This document shows positions 46,402 through 64,000 of a stretch of 64,000 nucleotides of DNA, piece after piece. Origin of the DNA: Tetmemena sp. SeJ-2015 (lineage: Eukaryota > Ciliophora > Spirotrichea > Sporadotrichida > Oxytrichidae); contig JAJKFJ010022835.1 of the NCBI GenBank assembly GCA_027382625.1, forward strand, positions 1-64,000. The letters run 5' to 3'. Positions within the stretch are counted from its first letter, which is position 1; every line of letters starts with the position of its first letter. The position numbers and the translations under genes are program-made. The notes beneath the pieces were generated by a model. That model had not been told where the DNA came from and did not search any database. It saw only the letters and a list, made by a program, of their open reading frames with translations.

Positions 46402-46902
46402 GGGCTACTCTTTAAGTGTTAAAGTCTTTTCTCAATAAATAGGGTTTCTATTTTTAATATAAAAAGAGGAAAGAATACTAGAAAGTAGTACTACTCAAAC
46501 CAAAGTGAGAAGGAGGGTCAAAAAGTTTATAGTTTATTTGTAGTGGAAGTAGAATTTATTTTGAATTTTGAATTCCCTCTCTTCAACGATTAAAATGATC
46601 TTCAAAGATGGCAATAGATCATTACAAGGAAATTATATAAAATAGAAAGAAAAAAAAAAGATCTCAGAAAAATTTATAAGTTAAAAAACAAGTTCTACCT
46701 ATTTAAGATGTGGCAGTTTATAAACTTTCTGAATTTAATTTTATTAGAAATTTGCGAGCTAGTAGTGTAAACCGAATTGAATAATAATGCTTTGATTGAA
46801 TTAATTTGGATAATGACTCGAAACTGTTTAATATAAATTTAATATCTTTAAATAAGGTAGACTTCACAATACTTAGTTTTCGCTTCTAAACAAAGTTAAC
46901 CA
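46402..46902. promoter_or_regulatory. 5' region of Ca2+-ATPase copy A, duplicated upstream of copy B
   Basis: The ~60 bp before the ATG (AATATCTTTAAATAAGGTAG at 46841-46860, then ACTTCNCAANACTTAGTT-like) closely match 55901-55973 before copy B. Similarity continues patchily back to about 46550, so the duplication includes the promoter or 5' UTR. Confidence 0.6.
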
Positions 46903-48072
46903 ATGGCTGCCTTCTCCAAGAAAATAGACGAGCCACTGCTCTCAGAGGATTATGGTCAATTCGAAATCTCTGGAGAACAACTTATGTAAGCAATGGTTTA
47001 AATTTAAAGACTTCTCTCATCCAAGGCTCTTAGTCCATTCTAAAACTACTATTATTATGCAGAATATAGTAGAGAATTAAAGATGTTTAAAACCTAAATG
47101 CAATTAATAATTTGGTTTCTTATCCGCGAAGGAGGAGGCCATTTAATATTTATTGGTTCGATAGGAAATATTAGAAATATTTGAAGGGCTTTGAGAGAAT
47201 TTTAACTTTCCATTCTTACATCACAATATTAGGGAACTTTTCAATATTTCTAACATCTAAAAATTACACTATTAAATGGGTATAAGATAAATTAAATTGA
47301 TAACATCTTCAGCGGCCATTATAACGGGAATAAAATTTCACACAGTACTTATGAACTGTGGCACACCTACGGCGACACCTAGGGCATCGCCACCAAACTC
47401 AGATCTAGCCTTGAAGTAAGTCAATCAGATAAGAAAATAATTAACTCTCTAAGAACTTTTTTCCTCAGTTTAAATTAAAAAATCTTCTGAATGCTCTCAT
47501 ATCATCGTAAAGATTACAATCCATCCATCTCTGAGATAACATTAAAAGTTGATCAGGGAAAGTTAAAGGATTGTGAAATAAGATTTATTTTTTTAGAATA
47601 ATTTATTTAAAACGAAATAACTTGATAAGAAATTAATATCTTTTATTATAGAACGGAATTGCAGCAACTTAAAACGACATTAACTCTTTTGTTAAATAAT
47701 TTTTTATTTTTAAATTAAGAAGAGGATTGAAGAGTAAGTATTCTTGGCAAGATAAATAGAAAAATTATCTCATCATACTTTATTCTTAATTTTCCCTTTT
47801 GTTTAATCAATTGTTGAACTTATCTTTCTAGATTTGGTTCTAACAGTAATAAAACCTCACAAATATTAAAAAATGTGAGAATTACTTGGGTATCATTAAT
47901 TTCTTTATTTTAATAGAGAATGCAATAGGGAGCCTAAAAGATATACTAATCATTCTCTGTTTATTTAATTAACAGTAGAGATTAAAACTAGTAAACTATC
48001 TTTAATTGTATAAATATTATTTTTTTCCCTAATTCTAAACTCATTTTATTTTTTTAAAAAAAAACTGTAAAT

Positions 48073-48219
48073 TTTACAGAGTTGGCACGGGAGCTCGAAC
48101 AAGACAATTTAGCACGAAGCAAACAGAAACCATAGCCGCGCGCAGCTAAAAAATTTATTACCTTAAATGTCATGGTATTAAGACTATCTAGTTCAAGCTC
48201 CCGTGCCAACTCTGTTAAA
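48073..48219. repeat. Short element with ~25 bp inverted repeats
   Basis: The arms ACAGAGTTGGCACGGGAGCT at 48077 and its complement ending at 48215 match over about 25 bp with one mismatch. The interior of about 90 bp contains a small GC-rich hairpin (TAGCCGCGCGCAGCTA). It is MITE- or foldback-like. It lies within the interruption of copy A, about 0.3 kb upstream of the transposase relic. Confidence 0.75.
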
Positions 48220-48542
48220 TTGGGTTTTAAAAGATGGAGTTGCTCATCGGAAAGATAGACATTATTTATACAATTAGCAATAATTAACTAGTTAAAATCT
48301 CTATTCATAATGAAATCTAAAAAGATTAAATTCTAAAGTCTACTTCTTAAAATCTCTTGTATAATACTTCTTAAATTCTCTTGTATAATACTTATTATTA
48401 AGCGAGTCAAACGCGAAATTACTCAAAAATAACTACATGATCCATCCTATCTCAGTTTCATTTTGACTCTAAGGTATGGATGTAGTCACCCTTATCAGTA
48501 GTAATAGCCAGTTCTCAGCATCAACTCCATCTCAAAAATGTT

Positions 48543-49500
48543 GAGAGTGCCAGCGCGCACTATACTCTCGCATTTGAAAGTTGCAGATGAGAAAGTTAGG
48601 AGTTGCAGCTGTTCCTCATCGCACTTCTAAGTTTCAAGATGTCACATCAATTATTTGATTGATCCTCAAACTCTTCGCCACTAAGCGCACTTCAGTTTGG
48701 AGTAGCGCGCGAAGATCTTCCATAGATAGTTTCCTTATCTCAAGATCTCTCCGTAGACTGTAGCAAACATCTATCGTTGAAATGGCATAACGTAAAAACT
48801 GTGAATCGAGTGAAGCGCGTTATAGACTTCACTAAGCCATTTTATTATAATAATCTGAAATATATTTACACTGCTCAGGTGTGAGAGGATAGCGTGAAGT
48901 TTGTATGTGCTGACGAAGCTGTGTTCACACACAACACCTTCATGAAGAAGAGTTGGTACAAGAAGCACGATAACATAGAAGTTTACGAGTAGAAAGTAAA
49001 TATAACTACAAGTGCGTTACTTGCAGGAATCAGCGAAGACTCAGGCTTAGAAGCTTATGTCCTTCATCCTCGCTCTATCAAGCGAGAGCAGTATGTTGCG
49101 TTCCTTAAGAAGCTCAGAGAGAAGATCACAGACGGTGAGATCGTTCTACTCGTTGACAACCTCAGCGTACACAAGACAAAGGAAGCGAAGAAGGCATACG
49201 CTGAGTTGAACATCACTCCTGTTTTTAATGTTCCATACTCGCCAGAGTTCAACGGCATTGAGTTTTACTGGAACTTAGTTAAGGGACACTATAAGAAGCT
49301 GCTGCTCTATCACTTGATGCATGATTAAGCTATCGATACAGAGGATTTAATAGTGAGTAGTTGTAAGAGAGTGGAAGAAGAGAAGACAAAGTTATGTGCG
49401 AGATAAGGTAGAGTGAATATTTAGGAAAAGTATTTAAGCTTAATTAATGACTTAAGTCACTTTTGCTTATCTGGGAAGAAGGGATTCTTAGAGGATTCTA
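48543..49500 (+). mobile_element. Tc1/mariner-IS630-type transposase, decayed
   Basis: Two frames together give a transposase: an N-terminal DNA-binding part (YLKISPQTVANIYR, then after a one-base frame shift near 48778 LKWHNVKTVNRVKR), then a DDE domain (VCADEAVFTHNTF; EIVLLVDNLSVHKTKE; NVPYSPEFNGIEFYWNLVK). Asp, Asp and Glu of the catalytic triad are all present, with 34 residues between the second Asp and the Glu (DD34E), the hallmark of the Tc1/mariner-IS630 superfamily, to which the TBE elements of hypotrich germlines belong. A TGA near 48878 and the frame shift show it is degenerate. In germline DNA such elements are removed with the surrounding IES. Confidence 0.8.
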
Positions 49501-50823
49501 AAGCTCATTATATTTTGGTGTTTGAACGAACAGCCTCAATTTCGTTCTTATTTGACATTCATCTTTGAGATCTTAGAAGACCGAATTTTGCAAATCCTAT
49601 TGATTTTATCCGTTGCGCTTGTAGGAATCGGCATTTGGAATGACGGATCTTAACATGGATGGATTGAAGGTCTTTCAATTTTTATCGCTGTTACTATTTT
49701 CGTATCTGTGATTGCTGGAATCAACTACTTAAAGGAGAAGAAAGTTGAAAATCTATTCTCAAAGGCTGGTGACTAGTACATTGCGGTCTATAGAGGAGAA
49801 TAAGGATTAACAACCCGAGTCTAAATAGAATTGATCTCTATCATATAAATTTTTTGCAACTTTCTCTTTTAAATTTATGAGTGCTCAGCTCTGAATTAGT
49901 CATAGAAAAAAGCTTAAATAAATTGAAGTTAAATGATTAGTAGTTGGTGACTTGATCAAGATTGAGTCTGGGATGAGAGTGCCAGCAGATTGTTTGCTAG
50001 TAAGTGGTACGGATGTGGCCTGTAATGAGTCTATGATGACTGGAGAGTATGATTTGAATAAGAAAACTCCCCTATCAGCTGAGTCTTTTCAAAATAACCC
50101 TTGTCCATTCATGTTGAGCAAGACTTACATTCTTAGTGGCGAGGGGTAAGCTTTAATATGCGCTGTTGGACGTTACACTTATGCTGGTAGGATCTTTTAA
50201 AATTTGATATAAGAAAAAAAGTCAACTCCACTCCAAGAAAGACTCGAGATTATTGAAAATAAGATTGGGAAAATTGGTGTGTATGTTGCAATGCTTACCT
50301 TCATTTCTATGACTTTAAAGCTCATTATCACACTTGTTGTCAGCGATGCTAGCGTAAGTTAGATTCACATTATTCTTGAAATCTTGATCTCATCATAAAT
50401 TTATAGTACTTGATGTCTATTGGCACTTTTAAGAAGCTTCTTGAGTTTTTAATTATCGCTATCTCTTTGATTGTAGTCTCTGCTCCTGAGGGACTTTCTC
50501 TTGCAGTTACTATTTCCCTCGCCTTCTCATTAATAAAGATGAAGGATTAGAAAAACTTTGTTCGAAATTTTGACGCATTAGAGATTATGGGGTGCGCCAA
50601 CGAGATCTGCACTGACAAGACTGGCACACTCACTAAGAATGAAGCTTCTGTTCGCGAGATCTACTTCAACGAAGAAATCTACTCAGGTAGACCCTCTAAT
50701 TTCAGCTCAATCGTCAATGCTGACAAACTTATTGAGTCTGTCCTATACAATTGCTCTGTTCGAATTGAGTAAAACTAGAAAGGTGAACTCGAAGTTAAGG
50801 GTAGTGGCCCTGAGCAAGGGCTT

Positions 50824-50873
50824 ATTAAATTTCATAAGTCATTAACTTTTTGTTTCATACTGTTAGATATTAA
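50824..50873. other. IES candidate in copy A, pointer ATTAA
   Basis: ATTAA at 50824-50828 and 50869-50873. Loss of 45 bp joins EQGLIK to FVKDIGVDAHHIIRHKE in frame. The equivalent site in copy B has an IES with a different pointer. Confidence 0.6.
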
Positions 50874-51231
50874 GTTCGTGAAGGATATTGGAGTAGACGC
50901 TCATCACATCATTAGACATAAGGAAGATAAAGTGCTCCAGTAAATCCCCTTTAACTCAAGACGCAAAAGAATAACTACAGCTATCCGTCACCCCACTATT
51001 GTAAACCTAGTTAGAGTTTTCGTGAGGGGTACCCCGGAAATTGTGATGGAACTTTGCGACAAAATCCTAGATAAGGATGGTAGCGCCAAGGAGTTCAATT
51101 CAAATGAGAAGTAGAAGGTCCTTCAAGATATTGTATCCGACAATTTCACGAAAAAGGTATTCAGAACATTCCTCGTTGCCTATAATGATTTATCTCTTCA
51201 AGAATATGAAGTACTCCTAGCCAGTAATAAC

Positions 51232-51282
51232 AACTAATATATTAGTAAATCAATCATAGATACATTTTTAAGATTAGAAACT
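51232..51282. other. IES candidate in copy A, pointer AACT
   Basis: AACT at 51232-51235 and 51279-51282. Loss of 47 bp joins LLASNNN to FQDEKDKDALERGLTF. It is at the same position as the copy B IES at 58506. Confidence 0.6.
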
Positions 51283-51572
51283 TCTAAGATGAAAAGGATA
51301 AAGATGCACTTGAAAGAGGCTTGACATTTATTGGAATCTTCGCACTCTCCGACCCTTTGAGAGACGAGATTGTTGAATCAGTGAGCAAGTGCCGCCAAGC
51401 AGGCGTAAACATCCGTATGGTCACTCAAGACAATTTAACCTCAGCCAAAGCAACAGCCATCGAGGCGGGTATCGTCACTGCTGCTGAAGCTGAACAAGAA
51501 TACGTTTGCATGGAGGCCTAGCAGTTCCGCGAGATTTGTGGTAGCAAAAAGAACATGTTCAGTATCATTAAA

Positions 51573-52123
51573 GACAAGTTGAAATTGTAAACTATTTGCT
51601 TGCACATTAAACTATAAAATGCCCTTTTAATGGGAAAATTAGTATAGCATCGAGCTGTAAAACAAGGATTTAATTTAAATAATTGATATGCATAGTGATC
51701 TGGAGAAAATATTCATGCTCAGAAATAATAAAAAACTTTCGTCAGCAAAGAAGCAGAAATTTTATTGCGGGTACAGTGATTATTGGAATTATTCCATTGC
51801 TCTGTTTAACACTGGCAAGACCGTAAAGTTCTACTAAGAGGTAGTGAAATCCATCCTCCAAAAGCTTAGATCCGTATATAAAGTTTAGAATGATCAATCG
51901 ATTTTTTCTCTACAAATGCTTTTGACTACAAGAAGATTGCTATAAAATGTGTCACTTTTAGCATAAGAAATGCTTCTAGAGTAACTAATTTTGTTCTCAA
52001 ACTGAACTTTGTCTCTTTTATATATCAAACAATTCTTCATCATTACTAATTTCTTCAAATCAAACGATCATTAATGATAAGTGCAAGATTTTTACTGATT
52101 TAAATCTTAACAGACAAGTTGAA
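51573..52123. other. 540 bp segment between GACAAGTTGAA repeats
   Basis: AGACAAGTTGAA occurs at 51572-51583 and 52112-52123. Deletion would join KDKLK to [17 protein letters not shown] in frame. The interior holds a second copy of the start of the gene at 59026. It can be read either as an IES of copy A or as the boundary between a duplicated block and the unique 3' part of the ATPase. Confidence 0.65.
51688..51970 (+). pseudogene. Duplicate of the 5' end of the 59 kb gene
   Basis: MHSDLEKIFMLRNNKKLSS... parallels MHSELERIFKARTDQLKT at 59026 over about 65 bp, then diverges. The continuing frame (YWNYSIALFNTGKTVKFYQE, VVKSILQKLRSVYKV) has no counterpart that I see near 59 kb. It is part of the segmental duplication that also copied the ATPase 5' part. 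Confidence 0.55.
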
Positions 52124-53330
52124 GGTCATGGCTAGATCAACCCCAGAAGACAAATACATGCTTGTTACTCAACTCTAGGAGCACAAAGCTGTAGTAGCAG
52201 TTACTGGAGATGGCACAAGCGACGCCCCCGCCCTTAGGAAGGCAGATGTTAGTTTCGCTATGGGCATCACTGGAACCGAGGTTGCTAAGGAAGCATCAGA
52301 CATCATCCTGCTCGATGATAACTTCGCCAGCATCTTGACCGCAGTAAAGTGGGGTCGTAACATCTACGAGAACGTGCGTAAGTTCATCCAATTCTAACTC
52401 ACAGTCAACGTCGTTGCCATGTTCATCGTATTCCTTGGTGGAGTCGCTTAGAACGACTCTCCCCTCACTTCAGTGCAAATGCTCTGGATAAATCTCATTA
52501 TGGACGCCTTAGCTGCTCTTGCTCTTGCAACTGAAGCTCCCAGCACCAACAATCTCCAGAAAAAGTGCTACTCCAGAGAGGATCCAATCATTGCAGACTA
52601 CATGTGGAGAAATATTATAGGTCAAGCTCTCTTCCAAATAGCACAAATACACTTATGAGTCATCATTTTTAATTGCTGTGCTGGTGACTATACTATTCAG
52701 AGGGAAGCAGATCTTCGGCTTCGAATATGACGAAAGCATTAGCTTCTACTACACAGTTACAGTTGATGGCCAAGTAGTCTAAATGATGAACTAAACCTTA
52801 AAAGTAATGTTTAGTATAGATGACCAAGACAGCATTTTCTAATTCGTTTTAAATTACAGTTTAGCAGAAGATTGAGCACTACACTTTCATCTTCCACACT
52901 TTCGTATTTATGCAAGTCTTCAACTGGATCAACTCTCGCAAGCTTGGTTAAATCTACAACGTGTTTCAGGGTTTCTTCGATAACTTGCTCTTTCTCATTA
53001 TCATGGTCTTCACCATCATCGGCCAGTGTCTTCTCGTCCAATACGGAGGCTAGTCAGTTCGCACAGTTCCTCTGACCTGGTAAAAGCATGCTCTTTGTAT
53101 CGGCATTGGAGCATTAAGTTTGATTGTCTCAGTGTTCATCAAGGTCTTCTTGCCCGTTTCTTGGTTCTCTCGCTTCGAGATGAAGGAAGAGCCTCTCACT
53201 GAAGAACAAAATCAGGCTGTTATCAAAATATAGCTGAGAATTAAATTAAAATCGGTGATTAGTTAAAATACTAAATGGGGAATTGCAAATTCTAGACTGT
53301 TGAAATCACAGATTTACTCCTGATCTGTAG
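52113..53330 (+). CDS. P-type Ca2+-ATPase, 3' part (single copy)
   Basis: Begins at the motif GACAAGTTGAAGGT (52113-52126) and encodes [20 protein letters not shown], the hinge [20 protein letters not shown] (canonical TGDGxNDAPAL with Ser for Asn), [20 protein letters not shown], then membrane segments 5-10 ([90 protein letters not shown]), ending near TGA 53328-53330. Two interruptions (about 52650 and 52800-52865) are IES- or intron-like. This segment is better preserved than the 5' part just upstream of it. Copy B ends with the identical 14 bp motif, so I infer this is the 3' part of the copy B gene. Confidence 0.8.
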
Positions 53331-54676
53331 CTTGCTCGTTAGCTTTTCCAAAATTAATTTGAGTTTTTTCTTTAATCAACCTGAAAGCTCCCTCATTAGA
53401 AAGAAAAGTTGCACGCACTCATCATCGTTTTTTTCCAAATCTTATGTCATTAATAATTCTGTACTGAGTGCTCTCAAGTTGCAAGGATGAAAAGTTCTTA
53501 GAATTTGTTGCTGATTCGAATGGTGTAATAATTATTCAAATCTGGGATATTCCAAAAGTCATGATCTTATTCATTTATCATACAATATCTAATTCAATTC
53601 TCCTTTATATATATTAATTTCTTACCTATAATGGAATCATTTTTTGGAAAATAACTGATATCTGCTGTTAAAACTGACTATTGAAAGCTTTTCTGACATT
53701 AAACCTAGATTGACACTATCAACTGATGATCAACCCTATTTAGTTTTTAAGTCAAAATAGCATTATTTTGATAATTTTATAGTTAATTGAACATGATCAT
53801 AAGCTATGAATCAAGAATGATAAAAGAAGCGATTCTATTCTTATTTTTCGATAGAAAATGGATAAGCAAGTTTGCAAATAAGAGATCTGAGCTAAGAATA
53901 ATTGCTGCTTTTGATTCAATTTAATACTTGACTCATTCTTAATTTATAGTAAATTCAATGAAATGGAAATATAGGGTTTCTAAATTAATGAATGCAAAAT
54001 GATTTTATGAAAAGCAGTTTTTTATATTAATAATTGAATAGAGAATTAATTAACGCATTAAAAACCATAAACCCCCATCAAATGATGATAAGGATGTTAG
54101 TATAAGTTGAGTATAAAAATTAATAACATCATTAGAGTAGAAAATTAAATTAAAATCTTGTTTTATAATAGTAATAAATGAGGGCGTTGCAGTGGCTGTT
54201 GAATTAACAGATTTACCCCGATCTTAAGCTTGATTGATAAGTTTATTCTTTAATAATCGTCTGTGAACCTCTCAGCAGTGAGATATGATGCTGATTACAA
54301 ATTTTAGGATTTAAAGATGAATTGATTGTGTTATTACTAGTTTTAGATTGGACACACTTCAGCTACAGCTGATTTGTACTATTTTAATTTAATTTAATTT
54401 CTAATTTTTTCCTTATTTAAATTCTTTGATATAGTGGGAAAAAAGTTAATTTTTCATTAAAAATAAGTTCTTAAAATAAGTTAAGAAAGGAGATAGATGA
54501 TAATTTAATTGAGCAATAGATTTAAAATTAATTGTAAAATCTATAAAGCACTCATTTATATTTAATTCAGGCATCCAATATTTTTTATTTTACTATAAAT
54601 TCTTTAATGTTGAATTTTAATAATGCAACTACACTTTGGAATCATATAAATAATATTTTTATAGGTCTGATGTTGA
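53331..54676. other. Intergenic with a duplicated ATPase 3' tail
   Basis: AT-rich, no long ORF. The stretch around 54143-54300 resembles 53226-53420 (shared AAATTAAATTAAAATC, GACTGTTGAA/GGCTGTTGAA, ACAGATTTACYCC), i.e. a diverged second copy of the last codons and 3' UTR of the ATPase. Confidence 0.55.
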
Positions 54677-55177
54677 AACAATTCATCTTTACTTTTAAAA
54701 GTGAGGGTGTTGTTTAAGCTAAGTCAAGGTAAAATTAATTAGGAGAAGAATAGAACTGCTAAGATAGAAAAGGATATTGTTAAAGAAATTAAGTGTGACT
54801 TTAATAATCTCGCCACAAATTTTAAGCAAATATCTTTTGAAGATCTTTATATTTATCTTATTTATATTTCGATTACCACAAATTAAGTTTCTATTAGAGA
54901 ATCTAAATTATTTAATTTTGCTGACCATTTTAAATTAGATGAAGGTAATAGTAGTTTTCATACATTCTAAGTGATGGAGCACCAAAGAACGAAGCATAAT
55001 TTAAAACTTACTAAGTCCTGCAAAAAATTTTCTGGCCTTGAAGATAGATTAAGTTGCAAAAACTCAGATGATTCAAGATCAAGACTATGTGGACCTATTT
55101 ACTATTGGGAAAGAAAAATCTTAATTTCCCTTTTAAAAGACTTTTCGTAACAAATCTATTACCAATTGAAGGAGTGA
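54677..55177 (+). CDS. Hypothetical ORF, possibly germline-limited
   Basis: One open frame of 166 codons closed by TGA 55175-55177, using TAA/TAG four or five times. There is no ATG at its start, so an upstream exon or MDS is needed, or it is a fragment. The product is basic and mixed helix/strand (RTAKIEKDIVKEIKCDFNN; SFEDLYIYLIYISITTNQ; MEHQRTKHNLKLTKSCKKF; LCGPIYYWERKILISLLK). It lies between the ATPase 3' part and the copy B promoter, a place expected to be eliminated if the ATPase is scrambled. No family is recognised. Confidence 0.35.
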
Positions 55178-55973
55178 AATTCTTTCTTTTGCAGTGTCAG
55201 CAGATTTTATTTTGAATTACTTCACTTCAACAATTAAAATAATCTACCCATTGGAGGCATCATTTCATTTGGAATTGAGAAATTATAATAGGCTATCAAT
55301 ATAAAATGTATTTTCAACTCTAATAAGCTTTCCAGCTTTTAAGTTTTTGACTGTTTTTAGATATTTATCTCTCTCATTCTCTTTCTCTGCTTTTAACTGC
55401 GTTTTATTTCGAAGTCTAGCAATTAATAGTAACCTGTTTGAATTTAAGCTGGTTTGAATTAATAAATTCTGAGGTGGCAGCGATTATTATTGGATAAATA
55501 GAATTAGTTTATTGAAGATTCAATATACAAAATACAACAAATCTTAATTGCAAGTCTTAGTTTAATTAATTCTGTAAAGTAATTATATTAAAACCTTCAT
55601 GGCTTTGTAAAGAACACAAATCTCAGCATCTAAATAATTCTTAAGAGGCATTCCGGATAATAAATCTAAAACCCGCACTGCTAAAAAATCAATCACAAAG
55701 TACTTTTTCTATTCCAAAGAAAAAAATTTCACTGCACTTATATACTTTTGAGCTTATCCAAAATTCAAAGTTTCTAGAGGATTCATGCTTGTAATAAAAG
55801 CTTGGGTCCAATTTCACTGTTGTATATTTGTATTTCTGAATCTTCAATAGCCTAATTCTATTTATTCTATAATTACTCTCGTGGTTGCTCTATATAATTT
55901 AATATCTTCTTTAAATAAGGTAGACTTCCCACCACTTAGTTGCAACAAGAACAAACTTAAGCGATGGCTGCCC
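55178..55973. promoter_or_regulatory. 5' region of Ca2+-ATPase copy B
   Basis: Matches the region upstream of copy A in patches from about 55190 (ATTTTATTTTGAATT..., TTCAACAATTAAAATAATCT) and strongly over the last 70 bp (AATATCTTCTTTAAATAAGG at 55901-55920, then TAGACTTCC). There is no other gene here. Confidence 0.55.
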
Positions 55974-58909
55974 AACAAAAGAATATAGGAGAACCGCTCC
56001 TCACCAGCGATCTCTTCGACATCTCGAAAGAACAGCTAGTGTAAGTAAAAGTGAAAAGCTCATTCTTAATCCATGACACGAAATTCTTACTTACTATTCT
56101 TCTAGTGATCTTTTCCATTCGGATCATGTAATTTTAAGATTCAATTTAAACTTCTTAAAGTATATTGAATTAGGATAACATCCACAACTACCATGCTAAG
56201 GGAAATAAAGTTTCCCACAGTGTTTACGAGCTGTGGAACACATACGGTGGCCCCAAGGGTCTCTCCGCTAAACTCAGATCTAATCTCAAAGTAAGAAAAG
56301 CAGCCCAGCAATTATATATCTCTCTAAGATTCACTCCTTGCCTTGGTTTATATCTCGAGAACACTTAAGCCAGCTAAAGTGAATCACCCTAGCATGATCT
56401 CAGATATTACTAAGCCTTCACAGGGATTACGTAATATAGGGCAGTGGGTGGAGTGATATACTCAATCTCAAAGTACGATAAGCAGGCTTAAGCTCATAGT
56501 TTAGAAATTGAGAGTTAAGATGGAAATTGGAGCGAGATTTACTTAAAATTAAATGGCTTGATAAGAAACTAATCTATTTTTTAGAACGGAATTCTTGGAA
56601 CTGAAAATGACATTAACACTTAATATTATTGAACTCTATTCATCTTTGCTTTAAATTAAGGAGAGAATCAGTCAGTAAGTGTTATTAGCAGAGTTAAATA
56701 GAAGTGGTATCTACACCTACTTATTATATAATGAGATCTTTAAATTGATCAATTACTTATCTTCTGCTTATAGTTTTGGCTCTAATAGCAAGAGACTGCC
56801 TCGCATTCGCACTCTGTGGGAACTCATCTTGGAAAACTTCGAAGACCGAATTCTGCAAATCTTGCTGATTGCTGCTTTCGTGTCATTAGGTATCGGTATT
56901 TGGAAGGAAGGTATTGAACACGGATGGATCGAGGGTCTTTCAATCTTCATCGCCGTGGCTATCATTGTATCTGTGACTGCAGGAAACAACTATATCAAGG
57001 AGAAACAGTTCCAAAGGCTAGTCTCTAAGGCTGCAGATGAATACATCGCCGTCTATAGAGGAGAGGATGGATCAACCACCACAGTTAAATTAGAACTCAC
57101 TATAATAAGTGCATTCAACAAATTCTTCGTATTTGAGGTTAACACAACTTATTTTAGTGAGTGCTCAACTCTGAATTAGTCATGAATTTAAGCTTAATTG
57201 AATAAGAGATGATGAATTAGTAGTGGGTGACTTGATCAAGATTGAGGCAGGAATGAGAGTGCCAGCAGACTGCTTGCTTGTTAACGGCACTGATGTTGCT
57301 TGTGACGAGTCAGCAATGACTGGAGAGCCAGATCAGATGGAGAAAACTCCCCTCTCAGAGAGCACTTTTGAACACAACCCCAACCCATTCATGATTGGCA
57401 AGACTCTCGTAGTCAGTGGCTAAGGATAGGCTTTAATTTGCGCAGTTGGAGTTTATACTAGATCAGGTATGGCTGAGGAGAAATTGACTATTGAAGAAGA
57501 AGCAACTCCTCTCCAAGAGAAGCTAGAGACAATCGCAAATGAGATTGGAAAGATTGGTGTGTATGTTGCTATCCTCACCTTCATTGCAATGACTATCAAG
57601 CTCATTATCACTACTGCAGTCAGCGATGCTAGCGTAAGTAGACCCATTTTCTTCATTAAGCCTCGAACTCATGATCATTTTATAGCATTTGATGACTGTT
57701 GCCACCTTGAAGAAGCTTATTGAGTTTGTTATCATTGCTATCACTGTGATTGTGGTCGCTGTTCCTGAGGGTCTACCTCTTGCAGTTACCATTTCCCTCG
57801 CCTTCTCAGTCATGAAAATGAAGGAAGAGAACAACTTAGTAAGAAAGCTTGAGGCTTCTGAGACTATGGGAGGAGCAAACGAGATCTGCACAGACAAGAC
57901 TGGTACTCTAACAAAGAACGAGATGTCAGTTCGCGAGATCTACTTCAACGAGCAGATCTACTCTGGAAGACCCTCTCACTTTAACTCACTCACCAATGCT
58001 GATAAGCTCATAGAGTCTGTGCTATTCAACTGCTCTGCTCGCATTGAGAAAAACGCCAAGGGTGAACTCGAGGTTAAGGGTAACTGCACTGAGCAAGGTC
58101 TTATTAAGTTTCAATTGTCATTTATTGTTCTTACTGAAAGATATAAAGTTCCTCATGGAGGTTGGAGTTGACGCTCATCATATCATTCGCCAGAAGGATG
58201 AAAGAATTCTCCAGTAAATTACCTTCAGCTCCAGACGCAAGAGAGCTGCCACTGTTGTTCGCCACCCCACCATCGAGAACCTTGTCAGAGTTTTCGTGAA
58301 GGGTGCACCTGAAATTGTTATGGATTATTGCGACACCATCTTGGATAAGGACGGAAATACTAAGGACTTCAACTCCAAGTAGAAGGAGAAGACCCTCTAA
58401 GATATTGTCTACGGCACCTTCGCTAAGAAGGCCTTCAGAACTCTCCTCGTCGCCTACACTGACCTTACCCTCCAAGAATACGAGGCACTCCTCGCCGATA
58501 ACAACAACTAATTAATCAAGTAAGCATATACTCTTCTTTAATGCTTATAACTTCCAAAGCGAGAAAGACAGAGAAGTACTTGAGAGTGGCTTGACAGTTG
58601 CTGGTATCTTCGCCTTGCTGACCCCTTGAGAGACGAGATCGTTGACTCAGTGCGCAAGTGCCACCAGCAGGTATTAACATTCCGTATGGTCACTGGTGAC
58701 AGTCTTGACACCGCCAAGGCCATTGCCATCGAGGCAGGTATCATCACAGCTGCTGAGGCTGATCAAGAATACGTTTGTATGGAAGGCAAACAGTTCCGTG
58801 AGAGCTGTGGAGGCCTAGTGAAGATGGAAGATACCACTAACGGAGGTAGACTCAAGGAAGAGATCGGCAACAAGGGTATGTTCAGAATCGTTAAGGACAA
58901 GTTGAAGGT
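55974..58909 (+). CDS. P-type Ca2+-ATPase, 5' part, copy B
   Basis: ATG 55974 (MAAQQKNIGEPLLTSDLF). The first intron runs from about 56041 to an AG near 56161. Then VSHSVYELWNTYGG; LWELILENFEDRILQILLI and GLSIFIAVAIIVSVTAGN (membrane segments 1-2); the actuator VGDLIKIEAGMRVPADCLL; AMTGEPDQMEKTPL; VVAVPEGLPLAVTISLAFS (segment 4); phosphorylation site CTDKTGTLTKNE; FVKGAPEIVMD; RMVTGDSLDTAKAIAIEAG. The pump exports Ca2+ from the cytosol with ATP. Coding sequence stops abruptly after KDKLKV at 58909, before the hinge and membrane segments 5-10, at the motif GACAAGTTGAAGGT, which reappears at the start of the 3' part at 52113. Small indels near 58617 and 58670 disturb the frame. Confidence 0.85.
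58106..58150. other. IES candidate in copy B, pointer AAGTT
   Basis: AAGTT at 58106-58110 and 58146-58150. Loss of 40 bp joins EQGLIKF to LMEVGVDAHHIIRQKDE in frame. Confidence 0.7.
58506..58552. other. IES candidate in copy B, pointer AACT
   Basis: AACT at 58506-58509 and 58549-58552. Loss of 43 bp joins LLADNNN to FQSEKDREVLESGLTVA in frame. Same site and pointer as in copy A. Confidence 0.7.
58896..58909 (+). other. Candidate scrambling pointer GACAAGTTGAAGGT
   Basis: This 14 bp motif ends copy B and is identical to 52113-52126, where the single ATPase 3' part begins. The copy A equivalent (51573) matches only in its first 11 bp. Confidence 0.75.
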
Positions 58910-59025
58910 TCAACTACCTCTCATATTATAAAAATAGGTTATAAAGGCTCATTATAAGTGCCTGCAAAAAGCCATAATGGTCAAAGATTAATCAAAATAA
59001 TAGTAAATTAAAATTTTAATTAAAA

Positions 59026-62000
59026 ATGCATAGTGAACTGGAGAGGATATTCAAGGCCAGGACTGACTAACTTAAAACTATAGTCAGCAAAGAAGACAAG
59101 CAACAGTAAATCAATGCCTCCTCAAATGGATTATATTGAAATTTTTTTAAGTCCTTTCATTCATTCTAAATGGAGCAGGAGGAGGCTCAAACTCTGGAAA
59201 CAACCAAGGGCACATGCTAAACAGTGGCGGGTTCAAACGACAGAGGGGGTAATTCAGACCGCCCCTACAGCACTAGAAATCTCAACGACGATAATTTAGA
59301 CTCATCTCAGACCAAGGAAAACTTCTACAAGGAAGAATTCCTAAGATAACTTAAGCTCATGGACTAAACTCCCTAAATCAATCCTTCAAACTTATTCTAC
59401 CAGCCCTTTACTAAGCTCTTATCAGCAATAGTGCCTCAGCAGTGGTGGTGTTAACCTCCCTAATGTTCTGAATCTACACAGCAACTTCAAATGACTAGCT
59501 TCCTCTCTCGAGACTTGGACGAAAGCAAGACTAGACCAAGGCTGACCTTAATGGAAGCATGACTGCTGGTTCAGTTTATGGCTAGTCGGTCTAAAATCGG
59601 AAGGCCTCTCAGTTTGAGGGACAGACTTTGAATGAGAGAGTTAATGGCTCAGATCCTTTGAGCGCCTTTAGATTCATGACCAGTAAAAATCTGCTTGCCC
59701 AAGGAGTTTTTGAAGAACTCACTTCTTTGCAGAACCTGTACTGTCAGAAAATTATCTCAACCCAGGCCTGAAGAATCTGAGGAAGAGACAACAACTGTAA
59801 TAATAAGTATTTAGTTTCTACTTATAGTCATTTATTGTTTAAGATGAAGAGACGACTACTACTGTTGAGACTCATGAAGGAGTGGAAACCGAAAACTTAT
59901 TAGAGGACGAGACTCCAGGGTCAACTTAGCGTCTGGAGAAAGGAAAACTATAGAAGATGCTCTAGTTCAAAATTCAGAAGGAGGTAGCCGAGTAGATCAA
60001 CGAAGAAGAGAAAGCTAAGTTCTAAAAGGCGCAGTACCACATGGCGCATTTAATTTCCTAATATAGATGTATAGTTGTGTTTTAAGATTTCTTGGATGAT
60101 CTTTCTGCAGAGCAGAAGTACTACAACTTCCACTCTCCTTCGTTCTCACACAAGATGACTGAGAAGATGGGTCAGAGCATCTAGCAGTTTTGCACTCAGC
60201 TTCTGTAGAAAAAGAAACATCAACCTAGAGACTTATTTTAAAGGAAAGTCTAAAATTTCTAGAATCAGAATAGTCTATATTTAGGAATAAACAATGTTCC
60301 TGGCACTACTAACTTAGTCTCCTTATAACTTGGGGCTTCGAATGGAACCAATGGAGGCCTTGGCGGAGGGAATACAGGAAATCAGAATATGTAGATGACT
60401 CGCTAGCAGCGTCAAAATAGAGAGGACAGAGAGCGATTTGAAGCCAAGGAAAGAGAACTTACAGAGAAATTTATCTAATAAATGCTTATTGCATGAATGA
60501 ATCTTTAATCATAGATGCAAATTAGAGGCAATCAGATTGCGGAAGAGAAATCCCCAAGTAGAAGGTCTTAACGCTCTTGAACTTTCGATCGAGTAGATAT
60601 TCTCTCTTCCTACTCAGGCTATATTAAGCGAGAGAGACCAAACTATTTAGTTGAGAACAGACAATTCTTAAAAATTAATAATTTCCTTTTTATTCCTAAT
60701 CAAGAGGAGCCTCTGCCTCGCCTTCAAGGACTCCAACATCTGAGGGTTAGAGTAACTTAATGAATTACAAAGCAGATATTACAAAACGAAAGAAAGAGTT
60801 CACTTAGATTTTACTCAACCCCTAAAAGGTTCTTAAAAAATATAAAGTAAAGTAAAGTAAAATTTTAGGAATGGAATTAATAATCAATTTCAAATCTCAG
60901 CACTTAAAAGTACTAGATAAGAAACCGTACTATTATCCTGTGTAATCTTAAAAAATATAATTTACCAATTTCAATATCTTCAATGATTTTAAAAGCTTGC
61001 ACTTGATGATTCAGAGGAGGCTAGAAAAAGCGGTTGCTTGAAAAATTTGTGGAAGACTTATTCACTGAGCAACCTGAAATGGAGAGTTGGGTAGAGGCTA
61101 AAGAAATAATCCCCTCTTTAGAAGATAATGCCTCTGAGATAGGAGGAAAGGCAATCTCTAAGAAGACAGTAGGCGAGGCAGATAATATACACACAGAAAC
61201 TGCAAAAGGCAAGTCTCACTTTAAAGCTAAACTATTCAAATGCTTATAACATACATTAAGTCTGCTATGGAATAAATAGAGATAGCAGAGTTTGGTATCT
61301 TCAGGGACCTGGGTCCTTATGCGAGACAACTTTAGCCACAGAGCAATATTATTGAGAATTAACCTTAATATTATAAGCAAAGTTAAGAAAGAGAGGAAGA
61401 AAAAGCGGCGTATCCAGAAGAAAGTGCTTGAGAATCATATCCAAATTGACTCGCAGCAGCAGAACCTTAATGAAGAAATATACATGCTAGTTATAAGTGG
61501 ACTACTGCCACTGGATATGATAGTGAGTAGGATAAATGCGCTCAATCGCAGAGAGGCTTATCTCAAAACCCTTGCCAACAAGGTTGATCTCCACTATCAA
61601 CTTAATATATTGTAGATGTTAAAAGTAGTATTAAATATGATGACACTAGAATGAAAATGGGGAGAAGACTAAATCTCTTAATCCGTAAGTTCGATCAGCA
61701 GCTATGATAGGTCTTGGGATGCTTGAGTGCACACTCATAGACACCTCTCCTTCCTCAGCATCAGATTCGGAGAACTCACAGGACTCGAACGATTCTCAAT
61801 CTTTTAAAAGACAAACCCCTCAAACACATCATTTGATTGAATTCTTTCATATTTTTAGCTCAAAGATAGTAGCTCCACACCAAAACTTAAGGAGCCAAAG
61901 TTGCTTCAGCCTCAAAAGAATCCTAGAAAATAGGTGATAGAGATTTGGGGAACTAAGTAAACTCAAAATTGAATAATTAAGCTGCAAGGATAAGGGACTT

Positions 62001-64000
62001 TAGGCCGAGTCTGCTTGAAGATGATCAAGAAGAAGAGGAGGATTAGGAAGTAAATGATTTAATTTTGCTTTATCTGAATATGCTTTAAAGTATCTCACTA
62101 ATCTTACCAAAGGCAGAATAAGCTATAATAGAGAAGTGCTGCTCACACCTAGAAACTAAAGCTGATGAAGCAAGATGAGGAGAGCTTAAGCGATTAAGAA
62201 GAAGAACTGGTGGAGAGTGACTTGGAAGGGATTTTGAAGACGAGATCTAATCACAAAGAGTGAGCGATAAGAAGAGCAGCCAGAGACATAGTCAGAGCAG
62301 CAGAAATTAGAAGATCAATGGGATAGGAAGCACCCAGGGCTCGGCTGGCATATACTCTCGCAGAGAAAGCTCAGACGCTGTTCAAGCCTTGCTTATCAAC
62401 AAGTTTATTATCTTTTTGCGTTGCTGAGCCGAAGACTCCTAGAATCACAGCAGGCAAGTGGCTTGAAAGCTGACTAGCCTAAGAAAGAGATGAGCGAGGA
62501 GGAGCGAATGAGGTTGGAATATATAAACCTTCTCAAGCAGGGGAACAAGCGGAAAGGAAACAATAGTAAACTATATCTTGAGTTAGTTTATTGAAACAGA
62601 CGCGACTCTGTTATGTCCTCTTCAAATGAACTAAAAATCATTATAGGGTTTGTTAAAATCACATTTAAAGAAGAACGGAAAGGCTTTGGAAAGATAGGAT
62701 TAGAGAGGGTGAACTAAAATGAACTCTCAGTTATAAGCGAAGTAAACCACTCTTTGGTAGATCAAAGCATGACCAAGGAAGTGCTTAAGGCTTTTAACAA
62801 TTCCAGGTCCAACTACATTCACTTATAATTCTAATTGAAGCATAAGACTTTACTATATCATAGCTTGATTGGAGGACAGAACTTGAGTGAGTCACCCCCA
62901 CTGAGATTAAAGAACAATCGTGGCTAGTCCCCTCAGGACAATTTCTAAATTAGACTTCAAAAGGGAATCCAAGAAGGTTATGGCAGTGCTTAGAGCATGC
63001 CTGCACTACCCACAGTATATTAATAACCATTCTTTATTAACAGAGTGTGAAATATAGATCTTAGATAAGCTGAGACTGATTGAGGAATTGAGAAGTGCAA
63101 AGCGCTAACTAGAGACTGACTAGGAGAAGATGACCAAGTCAGTGCAGAAAAAGCAGACTTAGAATTTGAAAAACGTGGAGAGGATGCGAACTGAACTCAA
63201 TAAGCGAATTGAGCACCACCTTGAAAGCATCATCAAGATACTTCGATAATGCATATATTGGATGCTTCAGGATTATACTTGACAAGTTCTCAGAGGAGAT
63301 GGAGGATGAAGAGGATCCGATGCAGCAGAGGGACGACCTTGCTCAGCTGATTAGCACTGACACTATCCTTAAGTGCTCTGTAATCTAGAGTGAGGATATA
63401 GATGAGACTGTCAAGGCGAGGTTTCTCTCAAGATTGGTGCGTGAGTATAGAAAGAACAGAGAGAGGATGAAGCAAGAGTAGTTGAAAGAACAAGTCGAGA
63501 AGGAGATCGAGGAGAATATCTACAAACTTATTCACCCTTGCTGAATTAAATATTATGCGAGTTTTAAAACGCTTTCCTAGTTTAGGGTCAAGCCCTGATC
63601 GAGTTTCTAAGCGTTCAGGTAGCAGAGGAGATTCTCAATTCAGGATAAATTTGAACAACTCCCGTTACCATAACCCCAACAATAACAGCAACTCTTACTA
63701 TCAGCAGCAGTTTCAGGCTAACCTGAGTAGTTAGAGCCCACCACAAAGGAATGAAAGTAGGGGCAAGAGCTAGGGGAGGTAGAAAGGCCAGGTTAGCAAA
63801 TTCTTTTTGCATTAAATATTTTTTGTGATTAGCATGTTTGAGAGGGAGGACATTTCCCGCATGAAGAAAGGCTGGGGAGTGAACCAGTCGAAGAACTATG
63901 GTACAAAGCAGAGCAACACATTTAGCTTCCAACATGGATAGTCTAAATTAAGTTAGATATAAGCAGTGTCGATATTTATTATCTGCTAAAGATTCTAATC
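59026..64000 (+). CDS. Large coiled-coil, Q-rich protein (runs off window)
   Basis: ATG 59026 (MHSELERIFKARTDQLKTI). Segments: DNLDSSQTKENFYKEEFLR; ASQFEGQTLNERVNGSDPL; a helical Q-rich block (LEKGKLQKMLQFKIQKEVA; QRQNREDRERFEAKERELT); EDLFTEQPEMESWVEAKE; KVKKERKKKRRIQKKVLE; an acidic block (LLEDDQEEEEDQE; MKQDEESLSDQEEELVESD); KKEMSEEERMRLEYINLLK; a clear coiled coil (LDKLRLIEELRSAKRQLE, VERMRTELNKRIEHHLES); DKFSEEMEDEEDPMQQRDD; a basic helix (FLSRLVREYRKNRERMKQEQ); and an N/S/Q-rich tail still open at 64000. Introns (e.g. a ~30 bp GT..AG one near 59452) and IESs (63793) interrupt it. The length and coiled coils suggest a cytoskeletal or centriolar/basal-body scaffold (inference). No family is recognised. 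The gene is incomplete at the window edge. Confidence 0.6.
63793..63834. other. IES candidate, pointer TTAGCA
   Basis: TTAGCA at 63793-63798 and 63829-63834. Loss of 36 bp joins RQKGQV to SMFEREDISRMKKGWG, removing a Phe-rich out-of-place run. Confidence 0.6.

What the first reader, a model, noticed from the sequence alone, without database searches (positions are those of the whole stretch)
52113..58909. Probable scrambled Ca2+-ATPase gene: 3' part lies upstream of its 5' part
Copy B (55974-58909) is a well-preserved 5' three quarters of a P-type Ca2+ pump that stops at GACAAGTTGAAGGT. The only 3' quarter (hinge [11 protein letters not shown] plus membrane segments 5-10) starts at 52113 with the same 14 bp. 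The copy directly upstream of that 3' part (copy A) shares only 11-12 bp of the motif, has lost motif residues (MVTQD) and is broken by a transposon, whereas the 3' part is clean. The simplest reading is that the functional macronuclear gene is B-5' joined to the upstream 3' segment, i.e. permuted order.
Basis: partly seen in the sequence, partly recalled or inferred. Interest (0 to 1): 0.88.

Follow-up and report, generated by a model that had tools for sequence, protein, structure and literature searches.

The report
Calcium pump gene with inverted 3' end
In this ciliate's germline DNA a calcium-pump gene is split in two, and its working last third most likely lies backwards about 7.6 kb downstream, just past the end of the sequence that was read, while the piece inside the window that looked like the answer belongs to an older, decaying duplicate.

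Summary
The pieces in the finding are real: two copies (A, B) of the 5' part of a PMCA-type Ca2+ pump, a same-strand 3' part (T1, from 52113) between them, and a 14-bp repeat shared by B's end and T1's start. The main inference fails because the window ends too early. On the same contig a second, better preserved 3' part (T2) lies inverted at 66487-65402 and starts with the same 14 bp. T2 keeps GDGTND, a 6-bp and a 5-bp internal pointer and the last coding segment; T1 reads GDGTSD, has 2-3 bp at the first of these junctions, and no last segment was found. B and T2 show no departure at near-invariant sites; A departs at 9 of 60, T1 at 3 of 44. A paralogue on C3525 is split within about five codons of the same place, also with an inverted 3' part; one on C2600 is split there in direct orientation. 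So the gene is scrambled, most likely by inversion (B+T2). A and T1 belong to a decayed tandem copy whose 3' block is oppositely oriented. T1 has decayed much less than A, so past use of T1 as an alternative 3' end for B is not excluded. No somatic sequence of this species was available.

The parts
55964..58909 (+). Copy B: 5' part of the Ca2+-ATPase, in pieces (first ATG 55964; main block 56775-58909), ending in the pointer
   Evidence: Translations; Pfam Cation_ATPase_N, E1-E2_ATPase, Cation_ATPase, Hydrolase; 450 of 600 residues identical to Stylonychia P0001
58896..58909 (+). 14-bp pointer GACAAGTTGAAGGT at the end of B; identical copies at 52113 (+) and at contig 66487-66474 (-)
52113..53224 (+). 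T1: same-strand 3' part, partly decayed (GDGTSD; last coding segment not found)
49510..51587 (+). Copy A, main block of the 5' part: open but with many replaced residues (MVTQD, PEGLS)
46903..47690 (+). Copy A, first coding pieces (ATG 46903; 47299-47418; about 47655-47690)
48894..49400 (+). Tc1/mariner-like transposase frame (DDE_3) inside copy A
   Evidence: Pfam DDE_3, E 8.2e-20; coordinates read
46537..54755 (+). A unit: tandem duplicate of the B unit (55188 to contig 69246), with the segment 51762-54037 reversed relative to the B unit
51659..51753 (+). Start of the next gene, A copy (matches 58994-59095), lying between copy A and T1
51762..54037 (+). Reversed block of the A unit: matches contig 67220-67010, 66612-65402 and 65302-64953 on the minus strand
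55188..64000 (+). B unit, part inside the window; it continues on the contig with T2 at 66487-65402 (-), last segment 65359-65291 (-), and a GTP_EFTU-domain gene on the minus strand from about 68200 down

Best explanation
The window is ciliate germline DNA (in-frame TAA and TAG read as glutamine), probably of a hypotrich. It holds a scrambled plasma-membrane-type Ca2+-ATPase gene made of copy B (55964-58909, plus strand) and T2 (contig 66487-65402, minus strand, last segment 65359-65291). During development of the somatic nucleus T2 is inverted and joined to B at the shared 14-bp pointer GACAAGTTGAAGGT. The sequence between them (at least one other coding locus) is removed or processed separately. 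Shown: both blocks, the pointer, the in-frame junction, their preservation, and the same split in paralogous loci. Inferred: the joining itself. Copy A and T1 belong to a tandem duplicate of the whole unit in which the 3' block has the opposite orientation and both halves are decaying.
For: T2 exists and starts with the same 14 bp as B's end. B+T2 reads [14 protein letters not shown] across the join; the Stylonychia protein P0001, from one 3698-bp contig, reads FRIVKDKLKVLARS. T2 has GDGTND and 6-bp and 5-bp pointers at its first and last internal junctions, giving the expected protein. B and T2: no departure at near-invariant sites; A 9 of 60, T1 3 of 44. Branches: B 0.022, T2 0, against A 0.45, T1 0.14. 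C3525 has the same layout: 5' part plus strand, 3' part minus strand, 13-bp pointer about five codons from B's. The T2-GTP gene and 5' part-next gene neighbourhoods each recur in the A unit, which speaks against a chance assembly join.
Against: No macronuclear or RNA sequence of this species was available. The 14-bp pointer does not tell T1 from T2. B has three 1-base indels within about 72 bases, net -1 in frame. At T2's second internal junction only 3-bp candidate repeats restore the frame, and T1 has candidates of 4 bp and introns there. C2600, split at the same codons, has its 3' part in direct orientation, so an inverted 3' part is not general in the family.
Confidence: 0.8

Rival explanations
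1. One reading: the functional gene is B joined to the upstream T1, permuted order on one strand, and T2 is the spare copy.
For: B and T1 share the full 14-bp pointer, A and T1 only 12. The join is in frame. T1 is far less decayed than A.
Against: T1 has lost the N of GDGxND (118 of 118 homologues showing the pattern have it), departs at two more near-invariant sites, and its last coding segment was not found, while T2 is intact and uses the same pointer.
Confidence: 0.05
2. Both 3' parts are used, now or until recently: B is a shared 5' segment joined either to T2 (inverted) or to T1 (direct), as in alternative DNA processing; T1 is now failing.
For: Identical 14-bp pointers on T1 and T2. The residue difference A-B over T1-T2 is 2.42, outside the 1.0-1.54 seen for the two halves in 86 homologues. 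pN/pS 0.32 (A-B) against 0.17 (T1-T2), while C3525 gives 0.33 and 0.32 against B and T2. So T1 stayed under selection when A did not.
Against: T1 has catalytic and structural losses now. Partial gene conversion of T1 by T2 could also explain it: silent divergence is somewhat lower too (fourfold 45 of 131 against 76 of 174).
Confidence: 0.2
3. A and T1 still form a second, non-scrambled gene, joined by removal of the about 0.53-kb stretch between their 12-bp repeats, coding a divergent pump-like protein.
For: The A+T1 join is in frame. The 606 codons of A's main block and 330 of T1 used here have no TGA. A-B pN/pS is 0.32.
Against: A has TQD for TGD and PEGLS for PEGLP (119 of 119 and 118 of 118 homologues showing those patterns keep them); T1 has GDGTSD. 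A and T1 decayed at very different rates. With TGA as the only stop, lack of stops is weak evidence. A transposon interrupts A.
Confidence: 0.12
4. Assembly error: the inverted T2, or the tandem arrangement, is a misjoin of alleles or paralogues.
For: The assembly keeps near-duplicate contigs side by side, and B has clustered 1-base indels.
Against: A and B are only about 74% identical in DNA over the main block, so not alleles. Neighbourhoods of both ends recur in the A unit. C3525 independently shows an inverted split.
Confidence: 0.05

Closest known systems
Scrambled genes of Oxytricha and Tetmemena (Feng et al. 2022, PMC9797194; abstract, sections 8, 9 and 11 and passages read)
   Same: Coding blocks out of order or inverted in the germline, joined at pointers; local duplicates of blocks at scrambled loci; pointer positions conserved while sequences change; pointer sliding.
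   Different: Here the species is not identified and its somatic genome was not available; the comparison is between paralogues in one germline genome. 'ATPase' and 'calcium' do not occur in that paper's main text.
Alternative DNA splicing in Oxytricha (Chen et al. 2015, PMC4684698; passages read)
   Same: Duplicated end segments that could share one constitutive 5' segment, junction positions kept after duplication.
   Different: That paper reports no traces of degenerate duplicates of the shared segments next to its loci; here such a degenerate copy (A) is present. Two somatic products are not shown here.
Russian doll (nested) loci of Oxytricha (Braun et al. 2018, PMC5940158; abstract read)
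   Same: Other coding sequence lies between the blocks of one gene.
   Different: Nesting here is one layer as far as seen, and the inner genes were not worked out.
PMCA-type Ca2+-ATPase of Stylonychia lemnae (P0001)
   Same: Pfam regions of the family and catalytic motifs; 73% identity over the joined protein.
   Different: As a protein B+T2 is an ordinary pump; only its germline layout is unusual.

Membership tests
Scrambled ciliate gene (germline locus) | Order or orientation of coding blocks differs from the coding order | tested here: met
   B plus strand, T2 minus strand; coding order taken from Stylonychia P0001
Scrambled ciliate gene (germline locus) | Matching pointer at both ends of the junction, kept once in the product | tested here: met
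   14 bp for B-T2; the join is in frame. 'Kept once' is assumed
Scrambled ciliate gene (germline locus) | A somatic chromosome of the same species joins the blocks | not testable with these tools
   Best listed protein is 73% identical, from Stylonychia lemnae; no somatic DNA of this species was found
PMCA-type P-type Ca2+-ATPase | Domains and motifs DKTGT, TGD, PEGLP, GDGxND | tested here: met
   Met for B+T2; A and T1 fail at PEGLP, TGD and GDGxND. Best solved matches are PMCA2 and PMCA1
Alternative DNA processing (shared 5' segment, two 3' segments) | Two duplicated 3' segments with a pointer matching the shared segment | tested here: met
   T1 and T2 both carry the 14-bp pointer of B
Alternative DNA processing (shared 5' segment, two 3' segments) | Two somatic products sharing the segment | not testable with these tools
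   No somatic sequence of this species
Nested (Russian doll) locus | Coding blocks of another somatic gene lie between the blocks of one gene | tested here: inconclusive
   Long open frames between 59 and 65 kb, but none of the 4 pieces sent to Pfam matched

The most novel reading that the evidence does not exclude
The locus catches gene scrambling midway: after a tandem duplication of the whole unit, the surviving 5' part (B) can be joined to either of two 3' parts with an identical 14-bp pointer, one inverted downstream (T2) and one direct upstream (T1), and T1 was kept under selection as an alternative 3' end for B after its own 5' partner (A) began to die. That would be the intermediate predicted by the duplication-and-decay model, with the degenerate shared segment still in place.
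Probability: 0.2. Interest if true: 0.65.

Novelty: new member of a known kind. Interest (0 to 1): 0.42.

Why it matters
Inverted blocks in scrambled genes are known (13.6% of Tetmemena loci need translocation and/or inversion, PMC9797194 abstract), so the kind is not new. The locus is a good case for how scrambling arises: one junction is shared, within about five codons, by three paralogous loci, in both orientations, and one locus keeps a decayed duplicate of the whole unit beside the working one. In the trees the C3525 and A/B lineages separate before A/B separate from Stylonychia P0001, so if the inverted layout is inherited, the Stylonychia lemnae germline gene should be broken near the same codons with an inverted 3' part, which can be checked directly.

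Tried and rejected
Rejected: T1 as the only 3' part (T2 found). T1 as 'clean'. Another full copy of B in the assembly: the DNA search listed 8 matches, B itself, A, three pieces on C3525, two on C2600 and one on C1156 (only best candidates are scored). Alleles as the origin of A and B (about 74% identity).

Not decided: which orientation is ancestral. C3525 is inverted and C2600 direct; one inversion before the C3525/C3471 split with reversal in A, or separate inversions in B and C3525, cost the same. The clock from noncoding flanks was too weak: 62-80% identity against 60-67% for shuffled partners. The second internal junction of T1 and T2 was not resolved. Species: not found.

Nothing came of an Rfam scan of 46-64 kb and a tRNA scan of the window. 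Literature: a search on scrambling and calcium-transporting ATPase listed 10 of 43 papers, and none of those 10 holds that phrase; two further searches gave the papers cited. I make no claim that this locus is unpublished. PMC10901763 was seen as abstract and outline only. Recalled labels: 'GTPBP1-like' for the GTP_EFTU gene and 'kinesin-like' for the frame next to C2600's 5' part come from memory; the latter had no Pfam match, and a B-box match in the C3525 gap lies below Pfam's cut-off.
Full report
Setting. The window is bases 1-64000 of contig C3471 (81,655 bases) of an assembly of 146,216,379 bases in 5213 contigs. Coding frames contain TAA and TAG, read here as glutamine, and genes are interrupted by short stretches flanked by direct repeats, as in ciliate germline DNA. 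The best listed homologue is from Stylonychia lemnae (73%), so a hypotrich germline assembly is the likely source; the species is not identified.

The observation. Copy B runs from an ATG at 55964 to the 14-bp word GACAAGTTGAAGGT at 58896-58909. The 3' part T1 starts with that word at 52113. Copy A ends with AGACAAGTTGAA at 51572-51583, 12 bp in common with T1. In 285 random pairs of 85-base stretches of this contig the longest shared word was 11. Copy A carries MVTQD and a transposase frame.

What the window hid. Searching the whole assembly with T1 gave a second 3' part, T2, on the same contig at 66487-65402 on the minus strand, 83% identical in DNA, the match beginning at the base equivalent to 52113. 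It starts with the same 14-bp word. So B has two candidate partners: T1 upstream in direct orientation and T2 downstream inverted. The pointer does not choose between them, and B+T1, B+T2 and A+T1 are all in frame.

Which is the partner. Four results favour T2. First, residues: T2 has GDGTND and T1 GDGTSD; all 118 proteins with the GDGx[any]D pattern, of 120 held, have N. At sites kept in at least 98% of the 86 homologues (of 120) that cover both halves, A has changed 9 of 60 and T1 3 of 44, while B and T2 show no departure (a few residues at B's indels were not in the comparison). Identity to Stylonychia P0001 is 75.0% for B, 57.3% for A, 80.7% for T2 and 74.8% for T1. Second, internal junctions: at T2's first and last internal junctions a 6-bp and a 5-bp repeat give the expected protein. 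T1 has 2-3 bp at the first, and tblastn found no last segment for it. The junction between these two is unresolved in both copies, and there T2 offers only 3-bp repeats, T1 up to 4 bp and introns. Third, trees of 12 rows each (3 from this genome, 9 chosen from the 120 proteins) pair A with B and T1 with T2 (100/99 each), next to P0001 (98/98 for the 5' half, 93/96 for the 3' half), with branches A 0.45, B 0.022, T1 0.14, T2 0. Fourth, the paralogue on C3525 has the same layout: 5' part on the plus strand ending with the pointer at 116687-116699, 3' part on the minus strand starting at 126569, 13-bp pointer ATTCAGAGATATT, about five codons upstream of B's pointer. P0001, from one 3698-bp contig, reads straight across the junction. 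The query was itself a joined sequence, so the evidence is P0001's own sequence, not the coverage figure.

A shared junction. A third locus, C2600, is split at the same codons as C3525, with a 12-bp pointer TTTAGAGAAATA and the 3' part about 9.1 kb further on in the same orientation. Contigs C227 and C4606 are 91-99% identical to C2600 over the 3' part and most of the gap; both stop at C2600:151877, about 0.6 kb short of the 5' part's pointer, so they back the gap and the 3' part only. The split is thus shared, within about five codons, by three paralogous loci with differing orientation. Which orientation is ancestral I cannot say.

The duplicate. The A unit is more than a copy of the 5' part. 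In order it holds the upstream flank (46537 on, matching 55188 on), copy A, the start of the next gene (51659-51753, matching 58994-59095), a block matching 67220 to 64953 backwards (a stretch inside an open frame that I take for the downstream part of the GTP_EFTU-domain gene, then T1, then its downstream flank), and 54424-54755 matching 68653-69246 forwards (domain found in two neighbouring frames of that gene). So a region of about 14 kb was duplicated in tandem; the block with the 3' part has opposite orientation in the two units, and no match was found in the A unit for 59096-64952 and 67221-68471. This explains why T1 lies upstream of B and why the start of another gene lies between A and T1.

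An imbalance. If A and T1 had always been one gene they should have decayed together. A differs from B at 184 of 598 residues and T1 from T2 at 42 of 330, a ratio of 2.42; for the 86 homologues the ratio between the two halves is 1.0-1.54, median 1.26. At sites where B or T2 agrees with P0001, A has changed 125 of 439 and T1 24 of 260 (Fisher p = 5e-10). From the values, pN/pS is 0.32 for A-B and 0.17 for T1-T2, while C3525 gives 0.33 against B and 0.32 against T2 (0.40 against A, 0.31 against T1). Fourfold sites differ at 76 of 174 (A-B) and 45 of 131 (T1-T2). So T1 either stayed useful for longer than A, most simply as an alternative 3' end for B whose 14-bp pointer it still matches, or was partly converted by T2. 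The first would fit the duplication-and-decay model described in PMC9797194 (section 8 read) and the alternative processing of PMC4684698 (passages read); the latter says its authors saw no degenerate duplicates of the shared segments. I regard this as open.

Against my reading. No somatic sequence of this species was found. B has, by eye, three 1-base indels within about 72 bases, net -1 in frame, and C3525 has a 1-base slip about seven codons from the same place. I take them for assembly errors because both genes are otherwise preserved, but this is not shown; if real, B is not functional as it stands.

Verdict. A scrambled Ca2+-pump gene, most likely by inversion with a partner outside the window rather than by permutation with the piece inside it: a new member of a known kind, with a well-kept record of how a spare copy decays.

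Noticed in passing
58611-58682; C3525:116402 (locus L039): 1-base frame slips about seven codons apart in two paralogues (B and C3525); copy A has none. Assembly error or something real, not settled.
   Followed up: partly
53226-53294 and 54133-54244: Repeat at the end of T1, seen twice here and at 33 other places in the assembly at about 84-91% identity (lower bound: 40 of 1211 candidates scored); the pair is.
   Followed up: no
60844-60946: 105-base stretch 95% identical to C2600:142838-142942, a much closer match than the surrounding genes; probably a recent germline repeat.
   Followed up: no
47826-47862 and 49508-49605: The start of one coding block of copy A appears on both sides of the transposon region, about 36-40 bases duplicated.
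   Followed up: no
48070-48104 and 48187-48221: 35-base inverted repeat, 91% complementary, 82 bases apart, within the transposon region of copy A.
   Followed up: no
C2600 (L042, L043), C227 (L046), C4606 (L047): Three contigs share 91-99% identical stretches; C227 and C4606 both stop at C2600:151877, so the assembly keeps near-duplicate haplotypes or copies apart.
   Followed up: partly
C3525:116700-125400 and C2600:143351-152496: The gaps between split ATPase halves hold other open frames: a weak B-box-like one in C3525 (below cut-off) and a frame starting right behind the 5' part in C2600.
   Followed up: partly
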